Positions 1 through 21,840 of a stretch of DNA of 22,147 nt are shown one piece after another. The position numbers and the translations under genes are program-made. The notes beneath the pieces were generated by a model that was not told the DNA's origin, did not search any database, and saw nothing but the letters and a program-made list of their open reading frames with translations. Origin of the DNA: Xanthobacteraceae bacterium (GTDB lineage: Bacteria > Pseudomonadota > Alphaproteobacteria > Rhizobiales > Xanthobacteraceae); NCBI GenBank assembly GCA_019746355.1, contig JAIESC010000201.1:1-22147 (forward strand), in the 5' to 3' direction. Within the stretch, counting starts at the first letter, position 1. The number at the start of each line of letters is the position of its first letter.

Positions 1-543
1 GGCGTCGCGGCGCGCAGCGGCGGCAAGGTGCTGTGGTGCGTGACGCGCATGGATCTGTTCGCGCCGGCGCTCGCCCAGGCGGGTCTCGCGCCCGGCCGGG
101 TCGTTTATGTCGAGTGCGGCGACGAGAAGGCCCTGCTCGCGTGTTTCGAGGAAGGGCTGCGGCATCCCGGATTGGGCGCCGTCGTCGCCGAAGTGTCGCG
201 TCTCTCCATGACCGCCTCGCGCCGGCTCCAGCTCGCGGCCGAGGCCTCCGGCACGCTCGGTCTCGCAGTCCGGCGCTGGCGGCGGCAGACCGAGGCGGCG
301 GATTTCGGGATGCCGACGGCGGCCACCACGCGATGGCGCGTGTCGGCGCTGCCGTCGGCGCCGCTCCCGGTCCCCGGCGTCGGACGGCCGCGCTGGCTGC
401 TCGAGCTCATCCGATCGCGCGCCGGAGAATGCGCGGATTTCGTTGTGGAGGCGTGTGATGACCAGGGTCGTCTCGCTCTTCCTTCCAGCCTGGCCGACGG
501 ACAGGGTGCGAAGGATGTTGGGCGACGCCGCGCCTCCGCCTGA
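1..543 (+). CDS. imuA: ImuA, mutasome accessory protein, 3' part only
   Basis: The reading frame is open from the first base, so the start codon and N-terminal half lie outside the window. The visible 180 residues look like the C-terminal part of the RecA-like ImuA family: a VLWCVTRMDLFAPALAQAGL segment, then VYVECGDEKALLACFEEGLR, then a basic region. ImuA works with ImuB and DnaE2 in error-prone repair after DNA damage, a role known from Caulobacter and mycobacterial relatives. The 3' end overlaps the start of imuB by about 85 bases in another frame, and the imuB ribosome-binding site (GGAGG at 447-451) lies inside imuA, so the two are probably translationally coupled. The SOS-regulated promoter expected for this cassette would lie upstream of the window. 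The family call leans on the downstream imuB and dnaE2. Confidence 0.85.
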   Translation, partial: GVAARSGGKVLWCVTRMDLFAPALAQAGLAPGRVVYVECGDEKALLACFEEGLRHPGLGAVVAEVSRLSMTASRRLQLAAEASGTLGLAVRRWRRQTEAADFGMPTAATTRWRVSALPSAPLPVPGVGRPRWLLELIRSRAGECADFVVEACDDQGRLALPSSLADGQGAKDVGRRRASA

Positions 544-4900: not shown

Positions 4901-5247
4901 AGGATGAGAGCGGCATCGCCAATCTCGTGATTTGGCCGAAGGTCTTCGAGCAATATCGGCGCGTCGTGCTGTCGGCCGGAATGCTCTCAGTTCGAGGGCG
5001 GATTCAGCGGGAGGGCGAGGTGGTGCATCTTGTGGCTCGGCACTTGTCCGACCTCTCAGGCGCGCTCGCGAGCGTCGGCGAGCGCGATGACGCCTTCCCG
5101 CTGCCGCATGGCCGCGGCGATGAATTCCACCACGGCAGTCCGTCGCCTGATCCGCGCGGGCTGCCGAAGGGTCCGCGGACGCGCGATCTCGGCAATACAT
5201 ACGGGCACATCGACCAGATCCGCGTGAAGACACGGGATTTCCGATAA
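1978..5247 (+). CDS. dnaE2: DnaE2 (ImuC), error-prone DNA polymerase III alpha subunit
   Basis: This 1089-residue C-family polymerase is complete and of the usual DnaE2 length. It opens with a PHP domain ([20 protein letters not shown]). The palm has [14 protein letters not shown], where D377 and D379 match the first two catalytic aspartates of E. coli DnaE, and D526 in the segment [10 protein letters not shown] matches the third. VRPGPIQG and the fingers and thumb regions follow. An OB-fold stretch ([20 protein letters not shown]) lies near residue 970, and the C-terminus ends [13 protein letters not shown], typical of DnaE2. It performs mutagenic synthesis past DNA lesions in the cytoplasm together with ImuA and ImuB. 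Its start overlaps the imuB stop by 4 bases. No frameshift or missing catalytic residue was seen, so the cassette is probably functional. Confidence 0.95.
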
Positions 5248-5342: not shown

Positions 5343-5349
5343 CGACATA
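5328..5349 (+). promoter_or_regulatory. Palindromic ArsR operator candidate overlapping the arsR start codon
   Basis: This is a perfect inverted repeat with 8-base arms TATGTCGA and TCGACATA separated by TTAGTC. It covers the -10 box and ends on the A of the arsR ATG. ArsR repressors bind imperfect dyads in their own promoters and release them when arsenite binds, so autoregulation of arsR-arsC-arsC-acr3 is the natural reading. Binding itself is inferred. Confidence 0.6.
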
Positions 5350-5720
5350 TGGAATTAGAGCAAGCTATCCTCGCGTTTGCGGCGCTCGCCCAGCCGACCC
5401 GCCTCGACGTGTTCCGGCTCCTCATGGAGCACGAACCTGACGGACTGCCGGCCGGCGAGATCGCCCGGCATATGGCCGTACCGCACAACACAATGTCCTC
5501 GCATCTGGCGATCCTCACCCGCGCCGGACTGGTCGAGGCCGAACGCCAGGGTCGTTCGATCATCTACCGCGCGAAGCTCGATGCCGTGCGTATGCTCACC
5601 GGGTTCCTGGTCAAGGATTGCTGCGGCGGCCGTCCGGAGATCTGCGCACCGCTGATCGCCGACCTTGCTCCCTGTTGTCCGCCGAAGAAGACCGCTGCCA
5701 AGGAGACCGTCCGTGACTGA
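5349..5720 (+). CDS. arsR: ArsR-family arsenite-responsive repressor
   Basis: This 123-residue winged-helix repressor begins with the usual ArsR opening LAQPTRLDVFRLL. A recognition-helix region VPHNTMSSHLAILTRAGLVE sits at about residues 44-63, and the beta wing QGRSIIYRAKLD follows. The As(III) site appears C-terminal: C91, C92 and C99 in DCCGGRPEIC, with another pair at C109-C110. Adjacent cysteines plus a third 7-8 residues later resemble the C-terminal site of Acidithiobacillus ferrooxidans ArsR rather than the ELCVCDL helix site of plasmid R773 ArsR. The start is placed at 5349 because residues 2-15 align with the family and no better start exists, although no ribosome-binding site is present. 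It overlaps arsC by 8 bases and probably controls the whole first operon. Confidence 0.93.
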   Translation: MELEQAILAFAALAQPTRLDVFRLLMEHEPDGLPAGEIARHMAVPHNTMSSHLAILTRAGLVEAERQGRSIIYRAKLDAVRMLTGFLVKDCCGGRPEICAPLIADLAPCCPPKKTAAKETVRD

Positions 5721-6240
5721 CCGCATCTATAATGTGCTCTTCCTCTGTACCGGCAATTCCGCTCGCTCAATCCTGGCCGAGAGCATCCTGATCAAGGACG
5801 GCCGCGGGCGCTTCCGTGCCTTCTCCGCCGGCAGCCAGCCAAAGGGCGTCGTCAATCCCCTCGCGCTGAAGGTGCTGCGCAGCTTCGACTATCCGGCTGA
5901 CGGTTTCCGCTCGAAGAGTTGGGAAGAGTTCGCCAAGCCCAATGCGCCGGTGATGGATTTCGTGTTCACCGTCTGCGACAACGCCGCCGGCGAATCCTGT
6001 CCGGTCTGGCCGGGCCAGCCCATGACGGCGCATTGGGGAATCGAGGACCCCGCCGCGGTCGAGGGACCGGACATCCAGAAGGAGGCCGCTTTCGTAGCCG
6101 CCTTCCGCTATCTCAAGAACCGCATTTCGGTCTTCACGGCGCTGCCGATTGCCAGTCTCGACCGCATGACGCTCGGCTCCAAGATCGTCGAGATCGGCCA
6201 GTTACAGGGCGCGACCAAGCCGCGTCCGAGCGCCGCATGA
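5713..6240 (+). CDS. arsC: Arsenate reductase, thioredoxin-coupled LMW-phosphatase type
   Basis: This 175-residue protein has the low-molecular-weight phosphatase P-loop CTGNSARS with catalytic C12 and R18. It also has the downstream VCDNAAGESCPVWPG (C88 and C96) and HWGIEDPAA (H107, D112) typical of this arsenate reductase class. It reduces arsenate to arsenite in the cytoplasm through a cysteine relay regenerated by thioredoxin. A longer frame extends upstream inside arsR, but I chose GTG 5713. AGGAG at 5701-5705 sits 7 bases before it, and the protein then begins TDRIYNVLFLCTGNSARS as expected. The gene overlaps arsR by 8 bases. The arsenite formed would be exported by the ACR3 pump two genes on. 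A second, unrelated arsenate reductase follows directly. Confidence 0.93.
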   Translation: MTDRIYNVLFLCTGNSARSILAESILIKDGRGRFRAFSAGSQPKGVVNPLALKVLRSFDYPADGFRSKSWEEFAKPNAPVMDFVFTVCDNAAGESCPVWPGQPMTAHWGIEDPAAVEGPDIQKEAAFVAAFRYLKNRISVFTALPIASLDRMTLGSKIVEIGQLQGATKPRPSAA

Positions 6241-6248
6241 GGCCGGTC

Positions 6249-6674
6249 ATGGACGTCATCATCTATCACAACCCCGATTGCGGCACGTCGCGCAACACGC
6301 TGGCGATGATCCGCAATGCCGGCATCGAGCCGCATGTCATCGAATATCTGAAGACGCCGCCGACGCGGACCATGCTCAAACAGCTCATCGCACGGATGGG
6401 CATCTCCGTTCGTGCATTGCTCCGCGAGAAGGGCACGCCCTATGCGGAGCTGGGCCTTGGCGACCCAAAGCTGACCGACGACGAGCTGCTCGACGCCATG
6501 ATGGCGCATCCGATCCTCATCAACCGCCCAATCGTCGTGAGCCCAAAGGGGGTGAAGCTCTGCCGCCCCTCCGAAGGCGTGCTCGACCTGCTTCCGCCGC
6601 AACAAGGCGAGTTCATCAAGGAAGACGGCGAGCGCGTGGTCGACGAGCGCGGCCGCCGCGTGGCGACGGCGTGA
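6249..6674 (+). CDS. arsC: Arsenate reductase, glutaredoxin-coupled type
   Basis: This 141-residue protein closely follows the E. coli R773 ArsC pattern: IIYHNPDCGTSRNTLAMIRN with the catalytic cysteine in HNPDCGTSR, then MGISVRALLREKGTPY, HPILINRPIVVSPKGVKLCRPSE and KEDGERVVDERGRR. It reduces arsenate using glutathione and glutaredoxin and is unrelated in fold to the preceding arsC. ATG 6249 is preferred because GAGG at 6239-6242 sits 6 bases upstream. An in-frame ATG at 6237 overlaps the previous stop as ATGA and would add four residues. Translational coupling with the upstream arsC is likely either way. Carrying both reductase types would let the cell draw on thioredoxin and glutathione pools. 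Confidence 0.95.
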   Translation: MDVIIYHNPDCGTSRNTLAMIRNAGIEPHVIEYLKTPPTRTMLKQLIARMGISVRALLREKGTPYAELGLGDPKLTDDELLDAMMAHPILINRPIVVSPKGVKLCRPSEGVLDLLPPQQGEFIKEDGERVVDERGRRVATA

Positions 6675-6683
6675 GGAGCGGCC

Positions 6684-7751
6684 ATGTCCACCTTTGAACG
6701 CTATCTCACCCTCTGGGTCGCACTCTGCATCGTCGCCGGTATCGCGCTCGGTCATGTCATGCCCGGCGTGTTTTATGCCATCGGCGCGGCCGAGATCGCC
6801 AAGGTCAACCTGCCGGTCGCGGCGCTGATCTGGCTGATGATCGTGCCGATGCTGGTGAAGATCGACTTCGCCGCACTCGGTCAGGTGAAGGAGCACTGGC
6901 GCGGCATCAGCGTGACGCTGTTCGTCAACTGGGCCGTGAAGCCGTTCTCGATGGCGGCGCTCGGCTGGCTCTTCATCGGCTATCTGTTCCGGCCTTACCT
7001 GCCGGCCGACCAGATCGACAGCTATATCGCGGGCCTCATCATCCTCGCGGCCGCGCCCTGCACGGCGATGGTGTTCGTCTGGTCGAACCTCACCAAGGGC
7101 GAGCCGCATTTCACATTGAGCCAGGTCGCGCTCAATGACACGATCATGGTGTTCGCCTTCGCGCCGATCGTCGGCCTGCTGCTCGGCCTCTCGGCCATCA
7201 TCGTGCCGTGGGACACACTGGTTCTCTCCGTCGTGCTCTACATCGTCGTCCCGGTGATCGCGGCGCAACTGCTGCGGCGCCGATTGCTCGCGACAGGCGG
7301 CGAGCCGGCCTTGAAGCGGTTTCTCGACCGGCTCCAGCCGTTGTCACTGGTCGCGCTTCTCGCCACCCTCGTTCTCCTGTTCGGCTTTCAGGGTGAACAG
7401 ATTCTGGCGCAGCCGCTCATCATCGCGCTACTGGCGGTGCCGATCCTGATCCAGGTCTATTTCAACTCCGGCCTCGCTTACCTGCTCAACCGCATCTCGG
7501 GCGAGCAACATTGCGTCGCCGGCCCCTCCGCCCTGATCGGCGCCTCCAACTTTTTCGAGTTGGCGGTCGCCGCGGCCATCAGCCTGTTCGGTTTCCAGTC
7601 GGGCGCCGCTCTCGCCACCGTCGTCGGCGTTCTGATCGAGGTGCCGGTGATGCTATCCGTGGTCTGGATCGTCAACCGCTCAAAGGGCTGGTACGAGAGC
7701 GGCTCTTCGAGATCATCGAAGGTGGTGGCGGACGCCGCTCAAGACGGCTAG
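6684..7751 (+). CDS. acr3: ACR3-family arsenite efflux permease
   Basis: This 355-residue integral membrane protein has about ten hydrophobic segments and the ACR3 signature LAAAPCTAMVFVWSNLTKGE, where C126 is the conserved cysteine needed for arsenite transport. VNWAVKPFSMAALGW and ASNFFELAVAAAISLFG are further ACR3 landmarks. It expels arsenite across the inner membrane using the proton-motive force. A GAGGAG ribosome-binding site lies just before the ATG, inside the 9-base gap after arsC. It is the main effector of this operon. The C-terminus ends in a short hydrophilic tail (SKGWYESGSSRSSKVV). No sign of decay was seen. Confidence 0.95.
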   Translation: MSTFERYLTLWVALCIVAGIALGHVMPGVFYAIGAAEIAKVNLPVAALIWLMIVPMLVKIDFAALGQVKEHWRGISVTLFVNWAVKPFSMAALGWLFIGYLFRPYLPADQIDSYIAGLIILAAAPCTAMVFVWSNLTKGEPHFTLSQVALNDTIMVFAFAPIVGLLLGLSAIIVPWDTLVLSVVLYIVVPVIAAQLLRRRLLATGGEPALKRFLDRLQPLSLVALLATLVLLFGFQGEQILAQPLIIALLAVPILIQVYFNSGLAYLLNRISGEQHCVAGPSALIGASNFFELAVAAAISLFGFQSGAALATVVGVLIEVPVMLSVVWIVNRSKGWYESGSSRSSKVVADAAQDG

Positions 7752-7792
7752 GAATCCCCCTCCAAAGGACATCGAGACCGAAAGACAGCGCA

Positions 7793-8539
7793 TTGAGCAG
7801 CGAAGCCGCTTGGCTGGCCATTCTATTTCTCGTTATCGCGCTGTTCTATGCGTCAGTCGGCCAGGCGGGGGCGTCCGGCTATCTCGCGGTCATGGGTCTT
7901 TTTGGACTTGCTCCCGCTGCCATGAAAACCACGGCCTTGTCGCTTAACGTGCTCGTGGCAGGCATCGGGACATTGCAGTTCTGGCGTACAGGCCAGTTGT
8001 CCTGGCGTACGTTCTATCCATTCGCCATTCTTGGATTTCCATTCTCACTGCTTGGAGGAGCGCTTCAGCTCCCGGCGCATGTCTATTACCCCGTCGTAGG
8101 CGTCATTCTCATATTGTCCGCGTTGCAGATGGTTCGCTCGGCGTTGAAGCCCGCTGCTGAGCAGCAATTGCCTCCATCAGAGCCTCCGTTTCTTCCGGCC
8201 CTGCTGGTCGGCGCGGGCATTGGTTTCCTGTCCGGGATGACGGGCACAGGCGGCGGCATTTTTTTGGCTCCGATCATTCTGGCGATGAATTGGGTAAGTC
8301 TCCGCAAGACGGCCGCCGTGACGGCAGCGTATAATCTGCTTAACTCCGCGGCCGCTTTGGCGGGCGCCTATAGCATCCTCAACGCGATCCCCGAGAGCTT
8401 ACCCGTGTGGCTTCTCGCGGTCGGCATCGGCGGTGCGGCCGGAGCCTTTATCGGTAGCCGCTACCTGCCGGACAGCGCACTGCGTTACATTCTCGCGTGC
8501 ATCCTCGTAGTCGCCGGCATCAAGCTTCTGTTGTCTTAG
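7793..8539 (+). CDS. TauE/SafE-family permease in the ars operon
   Basis: The 248-residue protein is almost wholly hydrophobic, with about eight segments in two related halves. These open AWLAILFLVIALFYASVGQA and LVGAGIGFLSGMTGTGGGIF. The glycine-rich SGMTGTGGGIFLAP block is typical of TauE/SafE anion permeases, which move sulfite, sulfoacetate or related anions. The frame is open upstream through the end of acr3, so the start is uncertain. TTG 7793 is chosen because it precedes the first hydrophobic segment, but its ribosome-binding site is weak. The next in-frame ATG would delete a membrane segment. It lies 41 bases after acr3 and is probably co-transcribed. Base composition looks less GC-rich than its neighbours, so it may have been acquired separately. 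Its substrate here is unknown. Confidence 0.8.
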   Translation: MSSEAAWLAILFLVIALFYASVGQAGASGYLAVMGLFGLAPAAMKTTALSLNVLVAGIGTLQFWRTGQLSWRTFYPFAILGFPFSLLGGALQLPAHVYYPVVGVILILSALQMVRSALKPAAEQQLPPSEPPFLPALLVGAGIGFLSGMTGTGGGIFLAPIILAMNWVSLRKTAAVTAAYNLLNSAAALAGAYSILNAIPESLPVWLLAVGIGGAAGAFIGSRYLPDSALRYILACILVVAGIKLLLS

Positions 8540-8594
8540 GGAAGGCTGCATGAAGCTGCCGATGCTCCTATTTCCATCACACTAGAAATATGGA

Positions 8595-8623
8595 TTGACC
8601 ACCCGGGCCTGCTGACGTAGCTT
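8595..8623 (+). promoter_or_regulatory. Candidate leaderless promoter of the second ars unit
   Basis: TTGACC at 8595-8600 (5 of 6 to consensus) is followed after exactly 17 bases by TAGCTT at 8618-8623, and the arsR ATG begins 7 bases after that box. Transcription would start on or next to the ATG, and there is no ribosome-binding site. Just upstream, TATTTC at 8569-8574 and GAAATA at 8585-8590 form a 6-base inverted repeat with a 10-base gap. That position, upstream of the -35 box, is unusual for a repressor site, so I do not call it an operator. Confidence 0.6.
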
Positions 8624-8629
8624 GTTTCC

Positions 8630-8950
8630 ATGAATCTCGAAAAAGCAGCAAAGCAGCTGGAAGCGATCGGCAACCCGACCCGTCTTCGCGTCTATCGAAC
8701 CCTCGTCCGGGCCGGGAATAACGGGCTGCCGGTCGGTCGCCTGCAAACCAAGCTCGGCATTCCGGCATCGACGCTCTCCCATCACTTGCAGCGGCTGGTG
8801 GCGACGGGGCTTGTGACGCAGGAACGTCAGGCCACCACGCTGATCTGCCGCGCCAGCTACCCGGCGATGAACGGCCTCATCGGCTTCCTCGCCGACGAAT
8901 GTTGCGCCGATGTGGGCTGCGTAGCGAGCGAGGAGGAAGCGGTCGCCTGA
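8630..8950 (+). CDS. arsR: Second ArsR-family metalloid-responsive repressor
   Basis: This 106-residue winged-helix protein shares the ArsR layout: LEAIGNPTRLRVYRTLVRAG at the N-terminus, IPASTLSHHLQRLVATGLVT as the DNA-reading helix, then a short wing. A putative As(III) site lies at the C-terminus, with C91 and C92 in DECCADVGC and C97, plus C73 in the wing. It is clearly distinct in sequence from the first ArsR, so this is not a recent duplication. It probably controls the flavoprotein and the MFS transporter that follow, and perhaps cross-regulates the upstream operon. The start follows the family alignment; the mRNA appears leaderless. Confidence 0.9.
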   Translation: MNLEKAAKQLEAIGNPTRLRVYRTLVRAGNNGLPVGRLQTKLGIPASTLSHHLQRLVATGLVTQERQATTLICRASYPAMNGLIGFLADECCADVGCVASEEEAVA

Positions 8951-8998
8951 CGGCGTTTCGTTTTGCGCCTTATTTCGATGATCCCGGAAGGATAGAAT

Positions 8999-10375
8999 AT
9001 GCAGCAACATTCCCAAAAAGCGCTTCCCGTGACGGTCATCGGCGGCGGCCCGGTCGGTCTTGCCGCCGCCGCCCATCTGGTCGGACGAGGCGTGCCGGTG
9101 AAGCTCTACGAGGCTGGTCCCACGGTCGGCGCTAATATCCGCGACTGGCGGCATGTTCGCCTGTTCACGCCGTGGCGCTATTGCGTGGACGCGGCGTCCG
9201 TCGCTCTCCTGGAGCGCCAGGGCTGGAAGCAGCCGCCCGCCCATGCGTTTCCGACCGGCGGCGAGATCGTGCGCGACTATCTCGAACCGCTTGCAGCAAC
9301 ACCCGCGCTTGCGGACATTGTCGAGACCGGCGCCCGCGTCGTCGCCATCTCGCGCCTCGGCATCGACAAGGTCGTCAGCCACGGCCGCGAAGAGCGGCCG
9401 TTCGTCGTGGCCGTAAAGACGGCCACTGGCATGCGGCGCGATCTCGCTCGCGCCGTGATCGACGCCTCCGGCACATGGGCAACCCCGAACCCGCTCGGCG
9501 CGAGCGGCGTGCCCGCCGACGGCGAGGCCACGTTTGCGGATCGCATTGCCTATGGCATCCCCGACGTCCTCGGCCGGGACCGGCATCTCTATGCCGGGCA
9601 GACGACATTGGTGGTTGGTGCCGGCCATTCCGCGGCCAATGCGCTGCTCGATCTCGCGCGGCTGTCGGACGCTGACCCGACTACGACGTCGATCTGGTCG
9701 ACACGCAGCACCAACCTCGCGCGCATCTATGGCGGCGGTGACGCCGACCAGTTGCCGGCGCGCGGTGAGCTTGGGGCGCAGACGCGGGCATTGGTCGAGA
9801 ACGGCCGCGTGTCGCTCTTTGCGGGCTTTTCGATCATCCGCATCCGCGAGGCGGACGGCCGGGTCATGATCGACGGCGAGACGGCGGCGGGTCCGCGCAG
9901 CATCGGCCCTATCGACCGCATCATAGCCGCGACGGGCCAGCGTCCAGACCTCTCGCTGACGCGAGAACTGCGGCTGGATCTCGATCCGTTGCTCGAAAGC
10001 ACCAAGGCTCTTGGACCGCTCATCGACCCGAACGAGCATTCCTGCGGGTCGGTCCCGCCGCACGGACATCGTGAACTCGCCCATGTCGAGCCAGGCTTCT
10101 ACACCGTCGGCGTCAAGAGCTACGGCCGCGCGCCGACCTTCCTGCTGCTGACGGGCTACGAGCAGGTGCGCTCCGTCGCCGCCGCGCTCGCCGGCGACAT
10201 GGCAGCCGCCGACAATGTCCAGCTCGTGCTTCCCGAAACGGGCGTTTGCAACACCTCCTTCTCCGTGGACGGCAGCGCGGCAGCCGCATGCTGCGGCGGG
10301 CCAGCGCCGGATAGGGCCGACGCCGTGGCGAAGGACGACGGCAAGGAGGGATGCGGCTGCGGCGTCGCCGCATGA
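8999..10375 (+). CDS. ArsO-like FAD/NADPH-dependent monooxygenase with Cys-rich tail
   Basis: This 458-residue flavoprotein has an N-terminal FAD Rossmann motif VIGGGPVGLAAAAHL (about residues 13-27). A second dinucleotide-binding motif, LVVGAGHSAANALLDLA, lies near residue 205 and probably binds NADPH. A short conserved ATGQRPDLS turn follows. This resembles flavin monooxygenases found in ars clusters, sometimes named ArsO. The last 45 residues carry C416, a C430-C431 pair, and C452 and C454 in GCGCG. This tail looks like a metalloid- or metal-binding extension, which is inference. GGAAGGA precedes the ATG. The stop overlaps the start of an MFS gene as ATGA, so enzyme and transporter were co-expressed, but that transporter is now broken. 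The substrate cannot be read from sequence; an arsenic species is plausible from context. Confidence 0.8.
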   Translation: MQQHSQKALPVTVIGGGPVGLAAAAHLVGRGVPVKLYEAGPTVGANIRDWRHVRLFTPWRYCVDAASVALLERQGWKQPPAHAFPTGGEIVRDYLEPLAATPALADIVETGARVVAISRLGIDKVVSHGREERPFVVAVKTATGMRRDLARAVIDASGTWATPNPLGASGVPADGEATFADRIAYGIPDVLGRDRHLYAGQTTLVVGAGHSAANALLDLARLSDADPTTTSIWSTRSTNLARIYGGGDADQLPARGELGAQTRALVENGRVSLFAGFSIIRIREADGRVMIDGETAAGPRSIGPIDRIIAATGQRPDLSLTRELRLDLDPLLESTKALGPLIDPNEHSCGSVPPHGHRELAHVEPGFYTVGVKSYGRAPTFLLLTGYEQVRSVAAALAGDMAAADNVQLVLPETGVCNTSFSVDGSAAAACCGGPAPDRADAVAKDDGKEGCGCGVAA

Positions 10376-11915: not shown

Positions 11916-12509
11916 TTACTCTCTTTTTGCTTCCCGCAGGATCTCCAGACCGCCTTTGAACACGACCACGACGATCGCTAAACCGATGAGCAAATCAGGG
12001 GTCGGTGAGCGAAATATCATCACCGACACGCCTGACGCGGCAATGCCCAAGTTCGCCAGCGTGTCATTGGTCGTAAAAATCCACGAGGCTTTCAGATGTA
12101 CCCCTTCGTTTCGATGAGTGCGGAGTAATCTGAGGCAGAGAAGATTAGTTGCGGCGTTTACAATGGCCGTGCCGATCATCGCGAGACCGTAAGGCTCGCC
12201 TCCTACGTAGAAGCGTCGCAAGACTTCCACGAACAATCCGAGGGACAGCGCGATGAGAAGAATACCTGACAGCCGGGCGGTCCATTGCTTCGTCTCGAGT
12301 GATCACCCGACGGCATACAGGCTCACGGCGTACACGGCGGAATCAGAGAGGTTGTCGAGTGCGACCGCCAGGAGACCAGTAGAAGAGGCGATCAGACCGA
12401 CCACGCCGGCGACGACGAACTGGGCGAAGTTGATTCCCAGAACCAACAGTAGCGTTCGCCGCTCTGCGGCGTCGGCAGGATCCAGTGAAGGTTCGTCGCT
12501 CTCAGCCAT
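11916..12509 (-). pseudogene. CDF-family cation exporter, one internal stop codon
   Basis: The minus-strand frame is continuous for about 198 codons except for one TGA at about 12301-12303, after SAVYAVSLYAVG. On the far side it continues SLETKQWTARLSGILLIALS. An arginine codon CGA changed to TGA would explain it. The protein has membrane segments and the CDF metal-site motifs ALDNLSDSAVY and IFTTNDTLANLG. It belongs to the short cation-diffusion-facilitator group of about 200 residues that exports divalent metals by proton exchange. ATG 12509 is chosen; TTG 12530 is an in-frame alternative. A MerR-type promoter lies just upstream, so the gene was probably controlled by the adjacent regulator. 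As read it would yield a fragment ending after two membrane segments. The rest shows no decay, so the lesion is recent or possibly an error. Confidence 0.88.
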
Positions 12510-12607: not shown

Positions 12608-13048
12608 CTACGCAGGCAACGCTCCCGATTTCGTGCTGTCAGGGAGCGACGGCGCAAGAGCATCGATGATGCGACAATCGGCGATCGTGCCGCAGCTGCA
12701 CTGCTCAATGAGGCTGGAAAGTTCATCCCTGAGGGCCGTCAAGTCTACAATTTTGCGATCAACGTCAGCCAGGTGTTGGCGGGCGATCAGGTCGACCCCC
12801 TCGCAGGATTGGCGCTTCTGGTCTGATAAGCTGAGGAGTTCCCGAACCTGGTCCAACGTAAACCCCAGATCGCGGGCTCGTCGGATGAAGCTCAGTCGTC
12901 CCAGGTGCTTCGCTGCGTAAGCTCGAAAGTTCCCGCGGGTACGCGAGGGAGCCGGGAGCAAGCCGATCTGCTCGTAATACCGGATGGTTTCGACCTTCGT
13001 GTTCGTTGCCCGTGCCAGATCACCGATCTGCAATCTTTCGGCGCCCAT
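12608..13048 (-). CDS. MerR-family divalent-metal regulator (CadR/PbrR/ZntR-like)
   Basis: This 146-residue protein starts LQIGDLARATNTKVETIRYY, the MerR winged helix-turn-helix. It continues EQIGLLPAPSRTRGNFRAY and RLSFIRRARDLGFTLDQVRE, then a dimerisation helix. Metal-binding cysteines are C82 and, at the C-terminus, C117, C119 and C125 in QCSCGTIADC. This pattern fits regulators of Cd(II), Pb(II) or Zn(II) rather than mercury or copper. It is divergent from the P-type ATPase: its ATG lies 5 bases from the ATPase -35 box, so the regulator's transcript probably starts inside the shared operator and has little or no leader. A second matching promoter lies beyond its stop, upstream of the CDF gene. 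Which metal it senses cannot be fixed from sequence. Confidence 0.92.
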   Translation of the reverse strand: MGAERLQIGDLARATNTKVETIRYYEQIGLLPAPSRTRGNFRAYAAKHLGRLSFIRRARDLGFTLDQVRELLSLSDQKRQSCEGVDLIARQHLADVDRKIVDLTALRDELSSLIEQCSCGTIADCRIIDALAPSLPDSTKSGALPA

Positions 13049-13052
13049 CGCA

Positions 13053-13083
13053 TTGACCCTCTAGTTCCTACAGGGTCTATATA
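13053..13083 (+). promoter_or_regulatory. MerR operator and promoter of the P-type ATPase
   Basis: TTGACC (13053-13058) and TATATA (13078-13083) are separated by 19 bases, as in zntA, cadA and pbrA promoters. The dyad at 13056-13076 has arms ACCCTCTAG and CTACAGGGT with one mismatch, around TTC. This agrees with the known CadR/PbrR/ZntR operator pattern. Metal-loaded MerR protein would activate transcription of the ATPase and probably repress its own gene, whose start codon is at 13048 on the other strand. Confidence 0.88.
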
Positions 13084-13113: not shown

Positions 13114-16100
13114 ATGTCGGACTCAGTGGTTTTAGCGAAGGCGTCCCAGCAGTCCCTTCGGTTCAAAATTGAAGGACTAGATTGCCAGAATGAAGTCCGC
13201 CAGCTGAAGGCCGCGGTGGGTCCTCTCGTCGGCGGTGATGGGATGCTCGCCTTTGACCCAAAGGGCGGTGTGATGGAGGTCAGCTTTGGCGGTGCCTGGC
13301 CGGGAATCGAAGCCATCATCACGGCGGTCGCGCGCACCGGAATGCGAGTGACTTCACATACCGCGCAAGACAGCGAGCTGGTCTTTGATGTTCAGGGGCT
13401 TGATTGCCAGAATGAAGTCCGCCAACTCCAGGCCGCCGTCGGTATCTTGGTGGGAGAAGAAAAGCTGAGTTTTGACACGAAGGCTGGCACCATGCGGGTG
13501 AGCCCGCAGAACCTCGCTACCGCGAATGACATCGAAAGCGCAGTCATACCGACCGGGATGCGGGCGAAGCTGCGCTCGGTCATAGATCCCGGAGAAGCGA
13601 CCAAAGACCTTCCCTTAGAATTTATAGTGCGTGGTCTCGATTGCCAGAATGAGGTCCGAGCGCTGAAGGCAGCCGTCGGACCTCTGGTCGGCGGAGACCA
13701 CAATCTAACCTTCGATACGAAAGGAGGCATCATGCGGGTGGCGCCCGCGTCAGGCGCTCCAGTGACGGCAATTCAGAATGCCGTCGCAACCACGGGAATG
13801 TTCGCCGAAGTTGCCGGGACCGGAATTACTGCGCGAAGGCCCGCCGCAACCTCCGCGGCAGGCGATGCGGCCTGTACCGATTGCTCAGCTGACATGGTTG
13901 GCGATCAGGCGCTCACCACGCCGGTTCCTATTTTGCCGGGACATGCGGTATTCAGGGTTCATGGCATGGACTGCGGGGATGAAGTCGCAGCCCTGAAGCG
14001 TGAAGTCGGCCCAGTCGTTGGGGGCGAGGACAAGCTGGCGTTTGACTTGGTCAACGGGCGGATGTCCGTTCTAGGCAGCGTAAACGCCTTGCCGCGCGAA
14101 CTCATAGAAAAGGCCGTTCTTAGAACCGGCATGACGGCGGAGCTTTGGCAAGAGGGCTCGACATCTGATGCAACGCTTGCTGAAGAGCGGCGAAGGCGAA
14201 CCCAGACGATTTTGACAACGGCAAGCGGAGTTCTAGCCGCAGCCGGTCTCGGGCTGCACTCCGTTTTAGGGGGAGGGATTGCCGCTGCCGTGGGTGCAGC
14301 CGAGGCAGGGGCCGGGACGCCGACCCCGGCGATAGCGGCCTACGTTCTCTCGATTCTTTGCGCTGTCCGTTATGTGGCTCCGAAAGCGCTGCTATCGGTT
14401 CGGCGCCTGCGCCCTGACATGAACTTGCTGATGGTAGTAGCCGTTGCAGGTGCGGTCGGCATCGGTGAGTGGTTTGAGGCGGCGACCGTTTCGTTCTTCT
14501 TCGCGCTGGCATTGGCTCTCGAGGCCTGGAGCTTGGGGCGTGCGCGCCGAGCGGTCGCGGCGCTGATGGAGCTTGCACCGACAGTTGCCCGCGTCCGGCG
14601 CGGCGACGGCATCGAGGTCGAATTGCCTGCCGTCGAAGTGCCAGTCGGCGCGCATATTGTGGTGCGTCCGGGCGACAAGATCCCGCTCGACGGAAGAGTC
14701 ATCGAGGGCGAAAGCGAGGTCAACCAAGCCCCGATCACTGGGGAAAGTGTTCCCGTCGCAGTGCAGGCCGGCACCGAGGTTTATGCCGGCACCATCAACG
14801 GCGAGGGTGCTCTAGAAATTCAAACGACTAAAGCAGCGCAAGACACAACTCTTGCTCGCATCATTCGCATGGTCGGTTCGGCTCAGAGCCGGCGGGCACC
14901 GAGTGAGCAGTGGGTCGAAAAATTTGCGCGAGTCTACACGCCCGCGGTGATGATCTTGGCGTTGATCGTCTTTCTTATCCCGCCGCTCGTCTTTGGTGGA
15001 GCATGGGAGCCGTGGTTCTATCGAGCGCTGGTGCTCCTAGTCATCGCCTGCCCCTGTGCGCTCGTTATCTCTACGCCAGTCACGATCGTCGCGGCGCTAG
15101 CAGGCGCCGCAAAACAGGGTGTGCTGGTCAAGGGCGGAGTACACCTTGAGACGCCGGCAAAGCTGAAAGCCATTGCTACGGACAAGACCGGCACCCTCAC
15201 GGAGGGCCGGCCAAAGGTCGTCGAGCTTGTGCCACTCGGTGGTCGCAGCGAGGCAGAGTTGCTGGAGTTTGCCGCCGCTCTGGAGGCCCGCAGCGAGCAT
15301 CCTCTGGCTCGTGCCATCCTCATTGAGGCGAAGCAGCGCGGACTCACTATAGCGCCAGCGTCGGCCGTACAGGCAATGCGTGGGAAAGGAGTCAGCGGGC
15401 GCGTTGGGGCCGCTGAAGCTTGGCTTGGATCACGAAGCTACCTGGTCGAGCGCGGAAAGACCACCGCCACGGCCGAGGTGCTGGCTGTCGCGGATCGTAT
15501 TGCGGGAGCTGGGCGTACTGTCGTCGCGATCGGTGATGAGCACGCTGTCTGGGGATTGATTGCTGTCGCCGATGCAATTCGTCCCGAAGCTAAACGCATC
15601 GTTGCAGAACTACATGCAGCGGGGATCGAGCGGGTGATCATGCTTACCGGGGACAACCGCGCGACTGCCGAATCAATTTCCCGCGAAACCGGTGTGGACG
15701 AAGTGCGCGCCGAGCTTCTTCCCGAAAACAAGGTAGCAGCCGTTGAAGAACTGGCTTGCCACTATCACACGTCGGGTGGTGCCATCGCAATGATTGGCGA
15801 CGGCGTGAACGATGCGCCAGCAATGGCGCGAGCGGACCTCGGTATTGCGATGGGCGCCATCGGTTCAGATGCTGCCATCGAGACCGCCGACATCGCTCTA
15901 ATGTCCGACGATCTATCAAAGCTGCCTTGGTTGATCCGACACTCCAAGGCGACGCTGGCCATCATTCGGCAAAACATAGGGTTCTCGCTCGCCGTGAAGC
16001 TGTTGTTTACCGGTTTGACGATCGCTGGCTTTGCATCGCTCTGGGGCGCAATTGCTGCGGACGTTGGCGCCTCTCTTCTGGTTGTTCTCAACGGTTTGCG

Positions 16101-16134
16101 GCTGCTCACGCGTGGGCAACAGCAGCAGGCTTAA
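13114..16134 (+). CDS. P1B-type metal-exporting ATPase with four N-terminal HMA-like repeats
   Basis: This protein of 1006 residues is about 250 longer than typical ZntA or CadA. The extra length is N-terminal: four HMA-like repeats centred on C24, C98, C177 and C287. The first three share GLDCQNEVR; the fourth has GMDCGDEV. A linker with CTDC (about residues 254-257) separates repeats 3 and 4. The core has the transmembrane metal site ACPCALVISTP (C646, C648), phosphorylation site DKTGTLTEG (D690), the TGES loop, the HP locus SEHPLARA, and GDGVNDAPA near residue 895. A CPC motif with a MerR CadR-type regulator points to Zn, Cd or Pb export rather than Cu. GAGG lies 6 bases before the ATG. 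The gene is followed 21 bases later by ccdA, then lspA and a DsbD-like gene, probably one operon. Confidence 0.94.
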   Translation: MSDSVVLAKASQQSLRFKIEGLDCQNEVRQLKAAVGPLVGGDGMLAFDPKGGVMEVSFGGAWPGIEAIITAVARTGMRVTSHTAQDSELVFDVQGLDCQNEVRQLQAAVGILVGEEKLSFDTKAGTMRVSPQNLATANDIESAVIPTGMRAKLRSVIDPGEATKDLPLEFIVRGLDCQNEVRALKAAVGPLVGGDHNLTFDTKGGIMRVAPASGAPVTAIQNAVATTGMFAEVAGTGITARRPAATSAAGDAACTDCSADMVGDQALTTPVPILPGHAVFRVHGMDCGDEVAALKREVGPVVGGEDKLAFDLVNGRMSVLGSVNALPRELIEKAVLRTGMTAELWQEGSTSDATLAEERRRRTQTILTTASGVLAAAGLGLHSVLGGGIAAAVGAAEAGAGTPTPAIAAYVLSILCAVRYVAPKALLSVRRLRPDMNLLMVVAVAGAVGIGEWFEAATVSFFFALALALEAWSLGRARRAVAALMELAPTVARVRRGDGIEVELPAVEVPVGAHIVVRPGDKIPLDGRVIEGESEVNQAPITGESVPVAVQAGTEVYAGTINGEGALEIQTTKAAQDTTLARIIRMVGSAQSRRAPSEQWVEKFARVYTPAVMILALIVFLIPPLVFGGAWEPWFYRALVLLVIACPCALVISTPVTIVAALAGAAKQGVLVKGGVHLETPAKLKAIATDKTGTLTEGRPKVVELVPLGGRSEAELLEFAAALEARSEHPLARAILIEAKQRGLTIAPASAVQAMRGKGVSGRVGAAEAWLGSRSYLVERGKTTATAEVLAVADRIAGAGRTVVAIGDEHAVWGLIAVADAIRPEAKRIVAELHAAGIERVIMLTGDNRATAESISRETGVDEVRAELLPENKVAAVEELACHYHTSGGAIAMIGDGVNDAPAMARADLGIAMGAIGSDAAIETADIALMSDDLSKLPWLIRHSKATLAIIRQNIGFSLAVKLLFTGLTIAGFASLWGAIAADVGASLLVVLNGLRLLTRGQQQQA
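13180..13658 (+). repeat. In-gene DNA repeats encoding the first three HMA-like motifs
   Basis: The same 23-base stretch, beginning GATTGCCAGAATGAAGTCCG, occurs exactly at 13180-13202 and 13402-13424. It recurs at 13639-13658 with one mismatch over 20 bases. The periods are 222 and 237 bases, matching one HMA-like domain each. The sequence identity at silent positions suggests fairly recent internal duplication, or conversion between repeats. The fourth domain (around 13969) is more divergent. Confidence 0.85.
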
Positions 16135-16155: not shown

Positions 16156-16911
16156 GTGGCAACGCTTTTCAGGGATCTCGGTTTGGCACTGGCCTCGAAT
16201 ATTGGGTTCGTGACCGCCTTTGCTGCAGGGGCTGTGTCGTTCCTCTCTCCGTGCGTGCTTCCGCTGGTCCCGGGCTACGTTTCCTATATGGCCGGGCAGT
16301 CGGTGGCCGGTGCTACCGTCAGCCAAGCGCGATGGCGAACGCTTGGACTGAGCCTCTGCTTTGTTCTCGGCTTTTCGACAGTGTTCGTAGTGTTGGGCTT
16401 AGGCGCAAACGCCTTGAGCATGGTTTTGAACGCGTACCGGTGGGAAGTTAACCTCGCCAGCGGTGTGTTGGTGATCGTCTTCGGGCTGTTCACGGCGGGC
16501 CTGCTCCGCTTGCCGTGGCTTCAGCGGGAGTTGCGATGGCATGGCGATCCTCCCGGAAGTGGCCCTGTCGCAGCGTATTTCCTAGGAATGGCTTTTGCGT
16601 TTGGCTGGACCCCTTGCATCGGGCCAGTGCTCGGCGCGGTTCTGGCTGTTTCGACATCATCAGCTAGTCTGAGCGGGGTTGCCCTTCTGACCGCTTATTC
16701 ACTCGGGCTTGGCGTGCCGTTCGTTCTCGCAGCACTTTTTATGGGCGGATTTGTGGAAAGGCTACGAAGCTTCCGCAAAGCCGGGCGCGCGTTGCAGCTA
16801 GCAGCTGGCGCCATCATGGTCGTTATGGGCATCGCTATGATCACGGGTCACCTGACGCTCTTTGCAATCTTCATGCTTGAGACATTTCCAGCGCTCGGGA
16901 CAATCGGATGA
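16156..16911 (+). CDS. ccdA: CcdA/DsbD-type transmembrane thiol-electron carrier
   Basis: This 251-residue membrane protein has about six hydrophobic segments and the paired cysteine motifs of CcdA: SFLSPCVLPLVPGY (C33) and FGWTPCIGPVLG (C154). CcdA passes electrons from cytoplasmic thioredoxin across the inner membrane to periplasmic thiol proteins. It serves cytochrome c maturation, or in split DsbD/ScsB systems it serves envelope disulfide reduction. The start is GTG 16156, 21 bases after the ATPase stop, with only a weak ribosome-binding site. The stop overlaps lspA as ATGA. No cytochrome c maturation genes are near. The neighbouring DsbD N-terminal-like protein is a more likely partner. 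Confidence 0.88.
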   Translation: MATLFRDLGLALASNIGFVTAFAAGAVSFLSPCVLPLVPGYVSYMAGQSVAGATVSQARWRTLGLSLCFVLGFSTVFVVLGLGANALSMVLNAYRWEVNLASGVLVIVFGLFTAGLLRLPWLQRELRWHGDPPGSGPVAAYFLGMAFAFGWTPCIGPVLGAVLAVSTSSASLSGVALLTAYSLGLGVPFVLAALFMGGFVERLRSFRKAGRALQLAAGAIMVVMGIAMITGHLTLFAIFMLETFPALGTIG

Positions 16912-17411
16912 CGACCCACTCCATCGCCGATCCTCCAGCGTCTCTGAAGATTTATGGACTGGTTTTCGCGTTCGGGTGGTTCGTGTTCGACCAAGTGACG
17001 AAGTGGTGGATCCTCGAAGGGGTAGTCTCGCCGCATGGCGCAATTCACGTCACACCATTCTTCAATCTTGTGCTCGGTTGGAACAGAGGCATTAGCTTTG
17101 GAATGCTCGGTGGCCATGATTTGCCCCCTTGGATTCTCGCGCTGTTCTCCGGAAGCATTGCTGCTGGCCTGATTATTTGGCTGCTGCGGACGCGTGATCG
17201 GCTGGTCGCGACGGGCCTCGCTCTGATCATCGGAGGAGCTCTCGGCAACGCTTTGGATCGGCTCCGTCACGGAGCAGTGGCCGACTTCCTAGATTTTCAT
17301 TTGGCCGACTGGCACTGGCCTGCATTCAACATGGCAGATGTTGGCGTGGTCTGTGGGGCAGCGCTTCTGATAACGGACAGTTTCATTAGGCGTGATCGCG
17401 GCGCAAATTAG
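16908..17411 (+). CDS. lspA: Lipoprotein signal peptidase (signal peptidase II)
   Basis: This 167-residue protein has four membrane segments and the conserved LspA blocks: FVFDQVTKWW (D28), FFNLVLGWNRGISFGML (N59, R60), GGALGNALDRLRHGAVADFL with catalytic D117, and WPAFNMADVGV with catalytic D144. It cleaves prolipoprotein signal peptides in the inner membrane and is the target of globomycin. Copies of lspA in metal-resistance operons are known, for example pbrC in the lead operon of Cupriavidus metallidurans. This one, inside the ATPase operon, is probably an accessory copy beside the housekeeping gene, which is not in the window. It overlaps ccdA by 4 bases. Confidence 0.93.
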   Translation: MTTHSIADPPASLKIYGLVFAFGWFVFDQVTKWWILEGVVSPHGAIHVTPFFNLVLGWNRGISFGMLGGHDLPPWILALFSGSIAAGLIIWLLRTRDRLVATGLALIIGGALGNALDRLRHGAVADFLDFHLADWHWPAFNMADVGVVCGAALLITDSFIRRDRGAN

Positions 17412-18353: not shown

Positions 18354-18740
18354 TCATCGGCCGACCAGTATCAATCCGGCTGCGACGACATAGGAAGCGA
18401 CGGATGGCGATGCTGTTAGAGCCATGCCAAACGAGCGCTGTGCGGCGCCTTGAGAGTAGCGCAATGAAAAGCTCACCCGGCCTAGCAAATAAAGGGCGAC
18501 GAGCAGGGGGATGACCACCAGTTCCAAGCCCCGGAGAGCCGTAGCAAGGACCAAATGTGCACCGACGGCCAAAACTGCTTGATCGAGCGAATTTTGGAGA
18601 AGAGCCTTGGGGATCGCGATCTCCTCGCTTGAAGGACCGAACGCCGCTCCTTTCCGATCGATTGTCGAACGGAATCGCCTGCTGCTTACCGCCCGAACAG
18701 ACCAAGCTAACCAGATGAACAAGGGCAAATCAATTTTCAA
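18354..18740 (-). CDS. MAPEG-family membrane protein, probably 5'-truncated
   Basis: The frame encodes up to 128 residues and ends LLQNSLDQAVLAVGAHLVLA, VVIPLLVALYLLGRVSFSLR and QRSFGMALTASPSVASYVVA. This is the layout of small MAPEG proteins, which have four membrane helices; the LQNxLEQ-like helix and the GR...R-Y segment are visible. The only start is a TTG at 18740 without a ribosome-binding site, and an in-frame stop lies further upstream. A nadE fragment on the opposite strand begins at about 18748, so the true N-terminus and promoter were probably lost at that junction. Related MAPEG proteins include glutathione transferases, but no activity can be assigned. It converges on the DsbD-like gene with 32 bases between stops. 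No terminator hairpin was seen there. Confidence 0.6.
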   Translation of the reverse strand: MKIDLPLFIWLAWSVRAVSSRRFRSTIDRKGAAFGPSSEEIAIPKALLQNSLDQAVLAVGAHLVLATALRGLELVVIPLLVALYLLGRVSFSLRYSQGAAQRSFGMALTASPSVASYVVAAGLILVGR

Positions 18741-19911: not shown

Positions 19912-21099
19912 TCAATTGGGCAACCAAGAGCGGAAACGGTCGGTAAATGAGGGCTTCCCTGTCGTGCTATTGGCCGAAGAGGCCGATCGCTGTTCATCGG
20001 ACGGGACTGCCGGCACCGATGCCAGAACACCGGGCGGAGAGTTGCGTGCGGTAGAGGAACCGATCACGTCCCGCTTCACCTGGTTGGGAACTGGGTGAGC
20101 GGTCGGCGGCGAAACGGGGGCCGAACCTGTCTGAACCACGATCTCGCTTGGCTCTGCCGCGAGCGCATCCGGCCGACTGACGTCGCCAAGTGACCGTCTT
20201 ATATTTTCGTCAACTTCCGACGACGGACCGGCGGCGGCAGCCAATGCAAGTTTCTTCATAGACGGGTGCCCACCACCGTCCTGATAAACGAGCCGAACGG
20301 CTGGCGCGCCTTTGGCAATGCGCGCCGCCACATCGCGCTCGTCGCGCGATGCCTTGGCCGAAATATCTGCGGCGTGGGCGGGGGCTATGTTGAACGCGTA
20401 ACGGCCGGCCGCAACCGTCCATGCCGGCTCATCGCCGCTCACTTCAAAGATGTCGGATCCGTCCTTCAGATTTTTCCAAAACGCGAGATGCGGGTCGGCG
20501 CGGTGCTTGGTCAGGTTCTCCGCAGTCATTCGGAACGGGTATGACTGAAATTGGAAAGACCGTTGCCCCGAAGCGAAAGCCTCGCGGGCTAAAGCGTAGA
20601 CCTCGCTCATCGCCTCGTCGGTCATTGCAAAACAGCCCTGCGACGAGCAGGCACCATGGACCATAAGGTGAGAACCAGTGCGCCCGTGCGAGCGGTCAAA
20701 CGCGTTGGGATATCCGATATTAAATGAAAGAAAGAGGCTCGATTTGGGGTTCATCGAGGCGGCGGTCACTTCATAGAAGCCCTCGGGGGCTTGACGATCG
20801 CCCTCTCGAACTTTCGGTCCGAGCTGCCCTGACCACCTGCACATGGGATATGTCTTGAGCAGGGCATATTTGCCGTCTCGCCCGCGCTTCCACACCTCGA
20901 TCTCGGATTCTTTTTTGAAGGAACGCATAAGGATTGGAGCGCCGGGGTCCATGCCCTTATCGTACATGAGCGCCAATGTTTTTGCGGGAACGGGAGCTAG
21001 ACCACGGGTGGATCTATAGGAATCCTGAGCGCAAGAGCTGAGCGCCGCGATGAGCCCACCAGCGAACACGAAACTCTTCCAACCACGCAAGCTCACCAC
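19912..21099 (-). CDS. L,D-transpeptidase (YafK-like) lipoprotein
   Basis: This 395-residue protein starts with an apparent lipoprotein signal: FVFAGGLIAALSSC, lipobox LSSC with lipidated C23. The catalytic YkuD/YafK-type domain spans about residues 40-215. SHLMVHGACSSQGCFAM holds H148 and the likely nucleophile C156, with C151 also present. Such enzymes cross-link or remodel peptidoglycan, or attach proteins to it, in the periplasm. Residues 225-260 (LAFWKNLKDGSDIFEVSGDE) are typical of alphaproteobacterial members. The tail from about 290 is low-complexity, rich in Ser, Pro and Ala. The start is GTG 21099, or GTG 21096 next to it; ribosome-binding and promoter signals are weak. It is the only clearly intact gene right of 18740. 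Its maturation would need a signal peptidase II such as the lspA product here. The 145 bases between it and the next relic show nothing I can name. Confidence 0.87.
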   Translation of the reverse strand: MVSLRGWKSFVFAGGLIAALSSCAQDSYRSTRGLAPVPAKTLALMYDKGMDPGAPILMRSFKKESEIEVWKRGRDGKYALLKTYPMCRWSGQLGPKVREGDRQAPEGFYEVTAASMNPKSSLFLSFNIGYPNAFDRSHGRTGSHLMVHGACSSQGCFAMTDEAMSEVYALAREAFASGQRSFQFQSYPFRMTAENLTKHRADPHLAFWKNLKDGSDIFEVSGDEPAWTVAAGRYAFNIAPAHAADISAKASRDERDVAARIAKGAPAVRLVYQDGGGHPSMKKLALAAAAGPSSEVDENIRRSLGDVSRPDALAAEPSEIVVQTGSAPVSPPTAHPVPNQVKRDVIGSSTARNSPPGVLASVPAVPSDEQRSASSANSTTGKPSFTDRFRSWLPN

Positions 21100-21244: not shown

Positions 21245-21840
21245 CGTTTCCCGCCAAGCGCGATTGTGATGTTCTGCCAGATGTTGCCGAGTGTCGCCTA
21301 AGAAAGAGCGATAAGGTCCGCGACGCCTCCTACGCGATCTCGAAGCAGGGCGCATCGGCGGTTTCCAACGCCACATCGGTGCCACCGCCCATCGAGACGC
21401 CGACCGAGGCCGCCGCGAGCGCGGGGGCATCGTTGATCCCGTCACCGATCATGGCGACAGGTCCTGTCTCCTTTAACCGGCCAATCTCGGTGAGCTTGGC
21501 CTCCGGTAACAGCTCGCCTTTGGCTTCCATGCCAAGTCCCGAGGCGATGGCGTTTGCGGTGCGCTGGTTGTCGCCCGACAGCATCAATACGCGAACGCCA
21601 CGATCCTTCAGCCGTCGTATGCCCTCGGCCGCATCGTCGCGTGGCTCGTCGCGCAACTCGATCAGCCCCTCGACAATCTTGCCCGCCATCAGCACGACAA
21701 CGGTCTTGCCCTCGTTCTCCAGCGCAAGGATGCGGTCGCGGACATCGGCCGGTATCTCGGCCCGTTCCGCAGCATGACGCGGCGAGCCGACCGAGGCAAA
21801 GCCGCCCTTCGTCGGGCGACGCCGCCACGGGCCAGTTCCT
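21245..21840 (-). pseudogene. Second metal P-type ATPase, C-terminal relic
   Basis: On the minus strand this gives FASVGSPRHAAERAEIPADV, LALENEGKTVVVLMAGKIVE and GLIELRDEPRDDAAEGIRRL, then VLMLSGDNQRTANAIASGLG, VAMIGDGINDAPALAAASVG and VSMGGGTDVALETADA. These are the nucleotide-binding and hinge regions of a ZntA/CadA-like P-type ATPase. At about 21335 the frame shifts to RVGGVADLIALS, meets an in-frame TAG and continues ATLGNIWQNITIALGGK, where homology ends. The N-terminal domains, the CPC site, the phosphorylation site and the last helices are missing. It is not a copy of the intact ATPase at 13114: the sequences differ throughout the shared GDG region, for example GDGINDAPALAAAS versus GDGVNDAPAMARAD. 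Confidence 0.85.

What the first reader, a model, noticed from the sequence alone, without database searches (positions are those of the whole stretch)
13114..14160. ATPase with four tandem HMA-like domains carrying Cys-x-x-Glu in place of Cys-x-x-Cys
Metal-binding N-terminal domains normally carry GMxCxxC. All four repeats here have DCxxE: three have LDCQNE and one has MDCGDE. Single DCxxE-type variants (for example DCPTEE) occur in some CadA/ZntA-like pumps, so the motif alone is not new. Four in tandem, with near-identical DNA in two and an extra CTDC in the linker, is unusual. The array could bind metal through Asp/Cys/Glu, which would favour Zn, Cd or Pb over Cu, or act as a regulatory brake or metal buffer.
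Basis: partly seen in the sequence, partly recalled or inferred. Interest (0 to 1): 0.7.

Follow-up and report, generated by a model that had tools for sequence, protein, structure and literature searches.

The report
Zinc/cadmium pump with four-domain sensor array
This is a bacterial zinc/cadmium-type export pump whose cytoplasmic tail carries four copies of a small metal-binding-type domain with an unusual Asp-Cys-x-x-Glu site; it looks like a recurrent, under-annotated variant of a known pump family rather than a new kind of machine.

The parts
13114..16134 (+). P1B-2-type ATPase, 1006 aa, annotated in relatives as Cd2+/Zn2+-exporting ATPase
   Evidence: Pfam E1-E2_ATPase and Hydrolase; NCBIfam TIGR01525 591 bits and TIGR01512 510.6 bits, both over cut-off; CPC 646, N954x7K962, D983xGx7N993, DKTGT 690
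13153..13365 (+). HMA repeat 1 (residues 14-84), GLDCQNE
13375..13587 (+). HMA repeat 2 (residues 88-158), GLDCQNE
13612..13824 (+). HMA repeat 3 (residues 167-237), GLDCQNE
13873..13884 (+). CTDC (residues 254-257) in the low-confidence linker before repeat 4
   Evidence: linker pLDDT under 50 at 236-269; Cys pair at this place in 163 of 199 distinct arrays
13942..14154 (+). HMA repeat 4 (residues 277-347), GMDCGDE, membrane-proximal
   Evidence: Pfam HMA best stretch of the whole protein 279-333; groups with single HMA domains of simpler pumps
13053..13083 (+). MerR-type promoter candidate: TTGACC, 19 bp with dyad, TATATA
   Evidence: the standard sigma-70 scan, limited to 16-18 bp spacers, finds none
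12608..13048 (-). Divergent MerR-family regulator, CadR-like
   Evidence: Pfam MerR domains; best PDB match CadR 6jgv, E 1.6e-28; below NCBIfam equivalog cut-offs for CueR and CadR-PbrR
16156..16911 (+). CcdA/DsbD-like membrane protein
   Evidence: Pfam DsbD_TM 58.3 bits; match in 30 of 77 related loci
16908..17411 (+). lspA-type signal peptidase II
   Evidence: Pfam Peptidase_A8; match in 49 of 77 related loci

Best explanation
It is a P1B-2 heavy-metal exporter (Zn/Cd, possibly Pb) switched on by the divergent MerR-family regulator. Its N-terminus is an expanded array of HMA domains. SHOWN by sequence and models: pump class, HMA topology of the four repeats, conservation of Asp, Cys and Glu, the promoter dyad as a sequence, and the wide range of repeat number. 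INFERRED: each repeat binds one divalent ion through Asp, Cys and Glu; repeat 4, equivalent to the single HMA of ordinary pumps, does the usual job of docking near the ion entrance and tuning or feeding the pump; repeats 1-3, tied to it by a flexible Cys-bearing linker, are additional, individually dispensable capture sites that raise the local metal supply at high load.
For: Pump class. Fold. Ligand conservation: DCxxE intact in 531 of 549 inner and 199 of 199 last domains of distinct arrays (one snake ATP7A row, P0155, left out here). Dispensable inner repeats: P0192 has lost the motif in repeats 2 and 3 and keeps it in 1 and 4; repeat number changes at least 22 times on the 117-row core tree. 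Repeat 4 ancestral: 94 last and 8 single domains form one group, support 98, in the domain tree (70 columns only). Precedent: plant HMA4 CCxxE HMA domain binds Zn with nanomolar affinity and is needed for function (PMC6255694 and PMC6305203, passages); that Asp of DCxxC ligates Zn in ZntA is recalled. Control region; 29 of 77 loci have a regulator at least 60% identical just upstream on the other strand (counted).
Against: No binding or transport datum exists here. Selection is clear, metal is not: conserved Asp/Cys/Glu could be structural, and other columns (G, L, F, GM) are as conserved. Inner versus last loss is a weak contrast (P rows only: 12 of 493 against 0 of 169, p 0.043, rows not independent, searches word-based). 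2 of 17 single-domain rows do not read DCxxE. The promoter dyad was not found by my pattern in 15 of the 32 loci examined, including six with a close regulator. The domain arrangement is not resolved (pTM 0.42 and 0.36).
Confidence: 0.62

Rival explanations
1. Regulatory brake: the metal-free array packs on the cytoplasmic domains and inhibits the pump; metal binding releases it, and more repeats give a steeper or higher threshold.
For: Terminal metal-binding domains are proposed as sensors for autoinhibitory tails in Cu pumps (PMC11970713, title and abstract opening in the listing only). A flexible linker (236-269, pLDDT under 50) would allow such movement.
Against: No inter-domain contact is predicted with confidence (pTM 0.42). 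Repeat number varies from one to six among related pumps, so no fixed geometry is kept. The text on ZntA says that truncation or CxxC mutation reduces activity (PMC6305203 passage), which is not what loss of a brake would do.
Confidence: 0.18
2. Metal sink: the array mainly stores or buffers cytoplasmic divalent metal and contributes little to transport.
For: Many sites on one chain, individually lost in some relatives.
Against: Four sites on a membrane pump are a small buffer against cell metal (inference). The array has stayed fused to pumps in the relatives examined; free-standing arrays were not searched for systematically, and the protein search only admits proteins of 0.55-1.75 times the query length.
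Confidence: 0.12
3. Degenerate HMA domains that no longer bind metal and serve as spacers or protein contact modules.
For: The usual CxxC is absent; Pfam HMA does not reach its cut-off on any single repeat.
Against: Asp, Cys and Glu are 98-100% conserved in 550 inner and 200 last domains including the one outlier row; spacers would not need this.
Confidence: 0.05
4. A copper pump with an odd N-terminus.
For: MerR regulator scores slightly higher on CueR (120.3 bits) than on CadR-PbrR (116.6), both below cut-off; nearest solved multi-HMA arrays are of Cu pumps.
Against: P1B-2 signatures; copper subfamily TIGR01511 373.6 bits is under its cut-off of 397 while TIGR01512 passes; regulator's best solved match is CadR and it shares CadR's cysteines in the alignment.
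Confidence: 0.03

Closest known systems
ZntA/CadA-type P1B-2 ATPases
   Same: CPC, N(x)7K, DxG(x)7N, P-type motifs, N-terminal HMA fold; MerR control is known for zntA/cadA in Cupriavidus (PMC11112998 passage)
   Different: DCxxE instead of DCxxC; four HMA domains instead of one or two (Brucella abortus ZntA has two GMDCASC, PMC10800456 passage)
Plant P1B-2 pumps HMA2/HMA4 with a CCxxE HMA domain
   Same: Glu in place of the second Cys of CxxC; binds Zn with nanomolar affinity (PMC6255694 passage)
   Different: Plant motif is CCxxE, one domain, with a long C-terminal extension; here DCxxE, four domains
Cu pumps with HMA arrays (ATP7A/ATP7B, Bacillus CopA)
   Same: Tandem HMA domains before the pump body; profile match to ATP7B E 5.9e-10, Foldseek to CopA two-domain unit E 7.7e-6
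   Different: CxxC, Cu(I), P1B-1 body
pbr lead-resistance operon (PbrR, PbrA, PbrC)
   Same: Divergent MerR regulator, 19-bp spacer promoter, P-type ATPase, lspA-type gene (PMC3431237 abstract and passages)
   Different: CcdA-like gene between pump and lspA here; PbrT, PbrB and PbrD counterparts were not searched for
CadA of Mesorhizobium metallidurans
   Same: P1B-2 pump needed for Zn tolerance, induced by Zn and Cd, with a CcdA-like gene just downstream, said to have 'uncommon characteristics' (PMC3668242 and PMC4932525 passages)
   Different: Its sequence was not seen, so membership in the array family is unverified; the primary paper is not held

Membership tests
P1B-2 ATPase (ZntA/CadA) | CPC in the membrane, N(x)7K and DxG(x)7N signatures | tested here: met
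   CPC 646, NIGFSLAVK 954, DVGASLLVVLN 983; signatures from PMC6305203 passage
P1B-2 ATPase (ZntA/CadA) | Family profile | tested here: met
   TIGR01512 510.6 bits over cut-off 313.5, TIGR01525 591 over 346.25; the narrower ZntA models NF008262 and NF033775 are not reached
P1B-2 ATPase (ZntA/CadA) | Exports Zn(II)/Cd(II)/Pb(II) | not testable with these tools
   No assay
HMA domain (PF00403) | Pfam gathering score | tested here: inconclusive
   Whole protein 41.5 bits over 24.8; single repeats none, 17.0, 12.5 and 23.3
[quoted passage not shown]
   Predicted in all four repeats; listed structural matches cover repeats 1-3 only
HMA domain (PF00403) | GMxCxxC metal site | tested here: not met
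   GLDCQNE x3, GMDCGDE; plant CCxxE domains show that CxxC is not obligatory
CadR/PbrR-type MerR regulator | NCBIfam TIGR02047 equivalog score | tested here: not met
   116.6 bits, cut-off 151.45; CueR 120.3, cut-off 147.4. So only 'MerR family, CadR-like'
MerR-controlled promoter | 19-20 bp spacer with dyad between -35 and -10 | tested here: met
   TTGACC-19-TATATA, arms 85% complementary; function not tested
pbr operon | PbrT, PbrB, PbrD counterparts | not tested
   Only MerR, ATPase and lspA-type genes were compared

The most novel reading that the evidence does not exclude
The DCxxE HMA array is a portable, copy-number-tunable metal-capture cassette: it expanded from one to six repeats in Alphaproteobacterial Zn/Cd pumps and has been recombined as a block between pump bodies, in one lineage onto pumps whose own HMA domains are DCxxC, so that natural hybrids carry both kinds of site.
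Probability: 0.4. Interest if true: 0.55.

Novelty: new variant of a known kind. Interest (0 to 1): 0.4.

Why it matters
Why heavy-metal pumps carry several N-terminal metal-binding domains is debated. Here is a natural series of related Zn/Cd-class pumps with one, two, three, four, five and six near-equivalent domains, with relatives in which single sites have been lost and hybrids with two site chemistries. That would let copy number and ligand set be tested in comparable pump bodies. It also shows that Pfam-based annotation understates such arrays.

Tried and rejected
Rejected: 'rare architecture'. Rejected: 'recent DNA duplication of two repeats' (47-58% DNA identity). Rejected: 'linker CTDC is a stray'. 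Rejected on present data: copper pump.

Led nowhere: standard promoter scan (spacer limited to 16-18 bp); the window's own genome (not held); the primary Mesorhizobium metallidurans CadA paper (not held), and a last protein search begun from a Mesorhizobium protein did not list that species among its 120 rows. Methylomonas plasmid hit looked like an array by pieces but has one DCAEE domain. Paper searches returned nothing; none of the 20 listed of 40 papers holds 'DCXXE'.

Caveats that I kept: in the array tree the P0060 group attaches between the two array types, so by topology alone it could be an outgroup that kept an ancestral array, with losses in the single-domain pumps; identity levels argue against this. 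The AU rejection of 'all array pumps one clade' (p 0.00175) fits transfer or loss. The group was named after a first tree was seen, so its p value is optimistic.

Full report
OBSERVATION. ORF 13114-16134 (+) encodes 1006 residues. DCxxE stands at residues 23, 97, 176 and 286, with CTDC at 254-257. Shuffling residues 1-350 gave four such motifs in 0 of 20,000 trials. Repeats are 41-57% identical in protein and 47-58% in DNA, so they are old duplicates; the near-identity in DNA is confined to a short run round the motif in repeats 1 and 2.

PUMP CLASS. The body matches TIGR01525 (591 bits) and the Cd/Zn subfamily TIGR01512 (510.6 bits, cut-off 313.5), while the copper subfamily TIGR01511 is under its cut-off (373.6 of 397) and the narrow ZntA models are not reached. 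It has CPC at 646, N(x)7K at 954 and DxG(x)7N at 983, which PMC6305203 (passages) gives as P1B-2 signatures. Best solved sequence matches are 7qbz and the zinc pump 4umv.

DISTRIBUTION. A search with residues 1-360 gave 414 proteins at E up to 1e-3 among the 7,990 candidates scored; 120 are listed. By motif 104 of 120 have four, 7 five, 4 six, 5 three; by a domain model 107, 7, 4 and 2. One scan of named genomes kept 77 loci of 87 relatives: counts run from one (Acidobacteria, Planctomycetota, some Sphingobium), two (Afipia, sphingomonads, Hyphomonadaceae), three (Azospirillum, Afipia), four (many Hyphomicrobiales and others), five (Consotaella) to six (Falsiroseomonas). The scan required GLDCQ- or GMDC-type patterns and so is biased to motif keepers. 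Of 296 genomes of the nearest family, 31 have a match: 14 with two or more repeats (7 four, 2 three, 5 two), 7 with one, 10 weak and not counted. Of 385 genomes of the class, 22 match, two of them (G001, G616) along nearly the whole profile. In plasmids 155 records match and 12 cover at least 80%. Seven loci from Martelella, Novosphingobium, Rhizobium, Bradyrhizobium and an unassigned MAG give the same match and domain scores, which suggests recent transfer; I did not align them.

CONSERVATION. In distinct arrays DCxxE is intact in 531 of 549 inner and 199 of 199 last domains (after leaving out P0155, a snake ATP7A picked up by the search). In database proteins alone it is 481 of 493 and 169 of 169 (p 0.043); rows are related and the searches are word-based, so the contrast is weak. 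P0192 (named Tardiphaga) has lost the motif in repeats 2 and 3 and keeps it in 1 and 4. 15 of 17 single-domain rows read DCxxE. A Cys pair lies within 45 residues before the last domain in 163 of 199 arrays, against 2 of 350 middle and 4 of 199 first domains; also in 6 of 17 single-domain pumps and in 0 of 62 domains of DCxxC pumps. The upstream stretches compared differ in length (means 38, 9, 17, 27 and 15 residues), which favours the last position; even so the middle linkers are nearly Cys-free. The E. coli ZntA CCCDGAC motif, needed for Pb binding (PMC10800456 passage), may be the counterpart; this is inference.

HISTORY. On a 117-row body tree the DCxxE pumps (102 rows) stand apart from the DCxxC pumps, and repeat number changes at least 22 times. 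On a 376-domain tree 94 last and 8 single domains group together (98), away from the inner repeats (only 70 columns). So repeat 4 looks like the original domain and repeats 1-3 an addition on the far side of the Cys linker. Body and array disagree: P0037 has its body with the DCKNE-type pumps (100/96) and its array with the DCQNE type (P0037 and P0039, 100/100). P0060, P0101 and P0120 have bodies near single-domain pumps (90/97, 100; P0060 against L005: 76%) but the P0060 array is 68% identical to that of P0041, whose body is only 60% identical; P0041 and this window's pump are 58% in array and 74% in body. Holding all array pumps together on the body tree is rejected, p 0.00175, though loss could also cause that. 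L095, P0121 and P0122 carry one or two DCQNE repeats before two or three DCPxC domains; L095 lies with the DCxxC pumps, and P0121's body is 58% identical to two DCxxC pumps against 43-45% to three DCxxE pumps. At least one exchange is required by the conflict of two well-supported trees; the hybrids add another.

CONTEXT. A MerR-family gene (12608-13048, -) faces the pump; its best solved match is CadR (E 1.6e-28) and the aligned cysteines agree, but it is under the NCBIfam equivalog cut-offs. Between them lies TTGACC-19 bp-TATATA with an 85% complementary dyad. In 32 loci examined of 77, 13 have TTGACC with a 19-bp spacer, 4 a TTGATT form with 19 or 20, 15 none by my pattern. In 77 loci a relative of the regulator is found in 58, lspA in 49, the CcdA-like gene in 30, the CDF fragment in 28 and the DsbD-N gene in 2. 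PMC3431237 (abstract and passages) describes 19-20 bp spacers for metal-sensing MerR regulators and the pbr operon with an lspA-type gene. PMC3668242 (passages) reports a CadA of Mesorhizobium induced by Zn and Cd, with a CcdA-like gene downstream and co-induced; whether it carries this array is not known to me.

MECHANISM. Shown: pump class, fold prediction, conserved ligand-type residues, variable repeat number, control sequence. Inferred: divalent metal bound by Asp/Cys/Glu in each repeat, repeat 4 as regulatory or delivery domain, repeats 1-3 as extra capture sites. The plant CCxxE domain, which binds Zn with nanomolar affinity and is needed in planta, is the nearest tested precedent. Brake and sink models are not excluded.

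VERDICT. A real, conserved, under-annotated variant of a known pump, not rare, with a modular history that is the more interesting part.

Noticed in passing
window 11916-12236 (-): A 106-aa ORF matches the second part of the Cation_efflux family only (profile 85-194 of 198), so it looks like a truncated CDF exporter gene; a relative lies in 28 of 77 related loci.
   Followed up: partly
window 21330-21695 (-): Fragment of a second P-type ATPase (Hydrolase profile 87-190); neighbouring frames hold stops, so it appears to be a remnant. Described only.
   Followed up: partly
window 443-5247 (+): Adjacent ORFs for an ImuB-like IMS-family protein with DUF6504 and a DNA polymerase III alpha-type protein, resembling an imuB-dnaE2 mutagenesis cassette (name recalled).
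   Followed up: no
window 5349-10375 (+): Arsenic-type cluster: two ArsR-like ORFs (by eye), a low-molecular-weight phosphatase/ArsC-type protein, an SBF-family transporter, TauE/SafE and an FAD-dependent oxidoreductase.
   Followed up: no
window 18354-18740 (-) and 19912-21099 (-): MAPEG and YkuD L,D-transpeptidase genes; relatives of both also lie near the array pump on Agrobacterium plasmid pAt3 (L133). MAPEG found in 19 of 78 loci, YkuD in 8 of 78.
   Followed up: partly
L095:5875-9228; P0121; P0122: Natural hybrid pumps with one or two DCQNE repeats followed by two or three DCPxC HMA domains.
   Followed up: partly
P0192 (Tardiphaga sp.): Array pump in which repeats 2 and 3 have lost the DCxxE site but repeats 1 and 4 keep it.
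   Followed up: no
L128 N-terminus: Single-domain relative preceded by a long His/Asp-rich repeat (HDHAGHDHAGHDHA), an alternative kind of N-terminal metal-binding extension.
   Followed up: no
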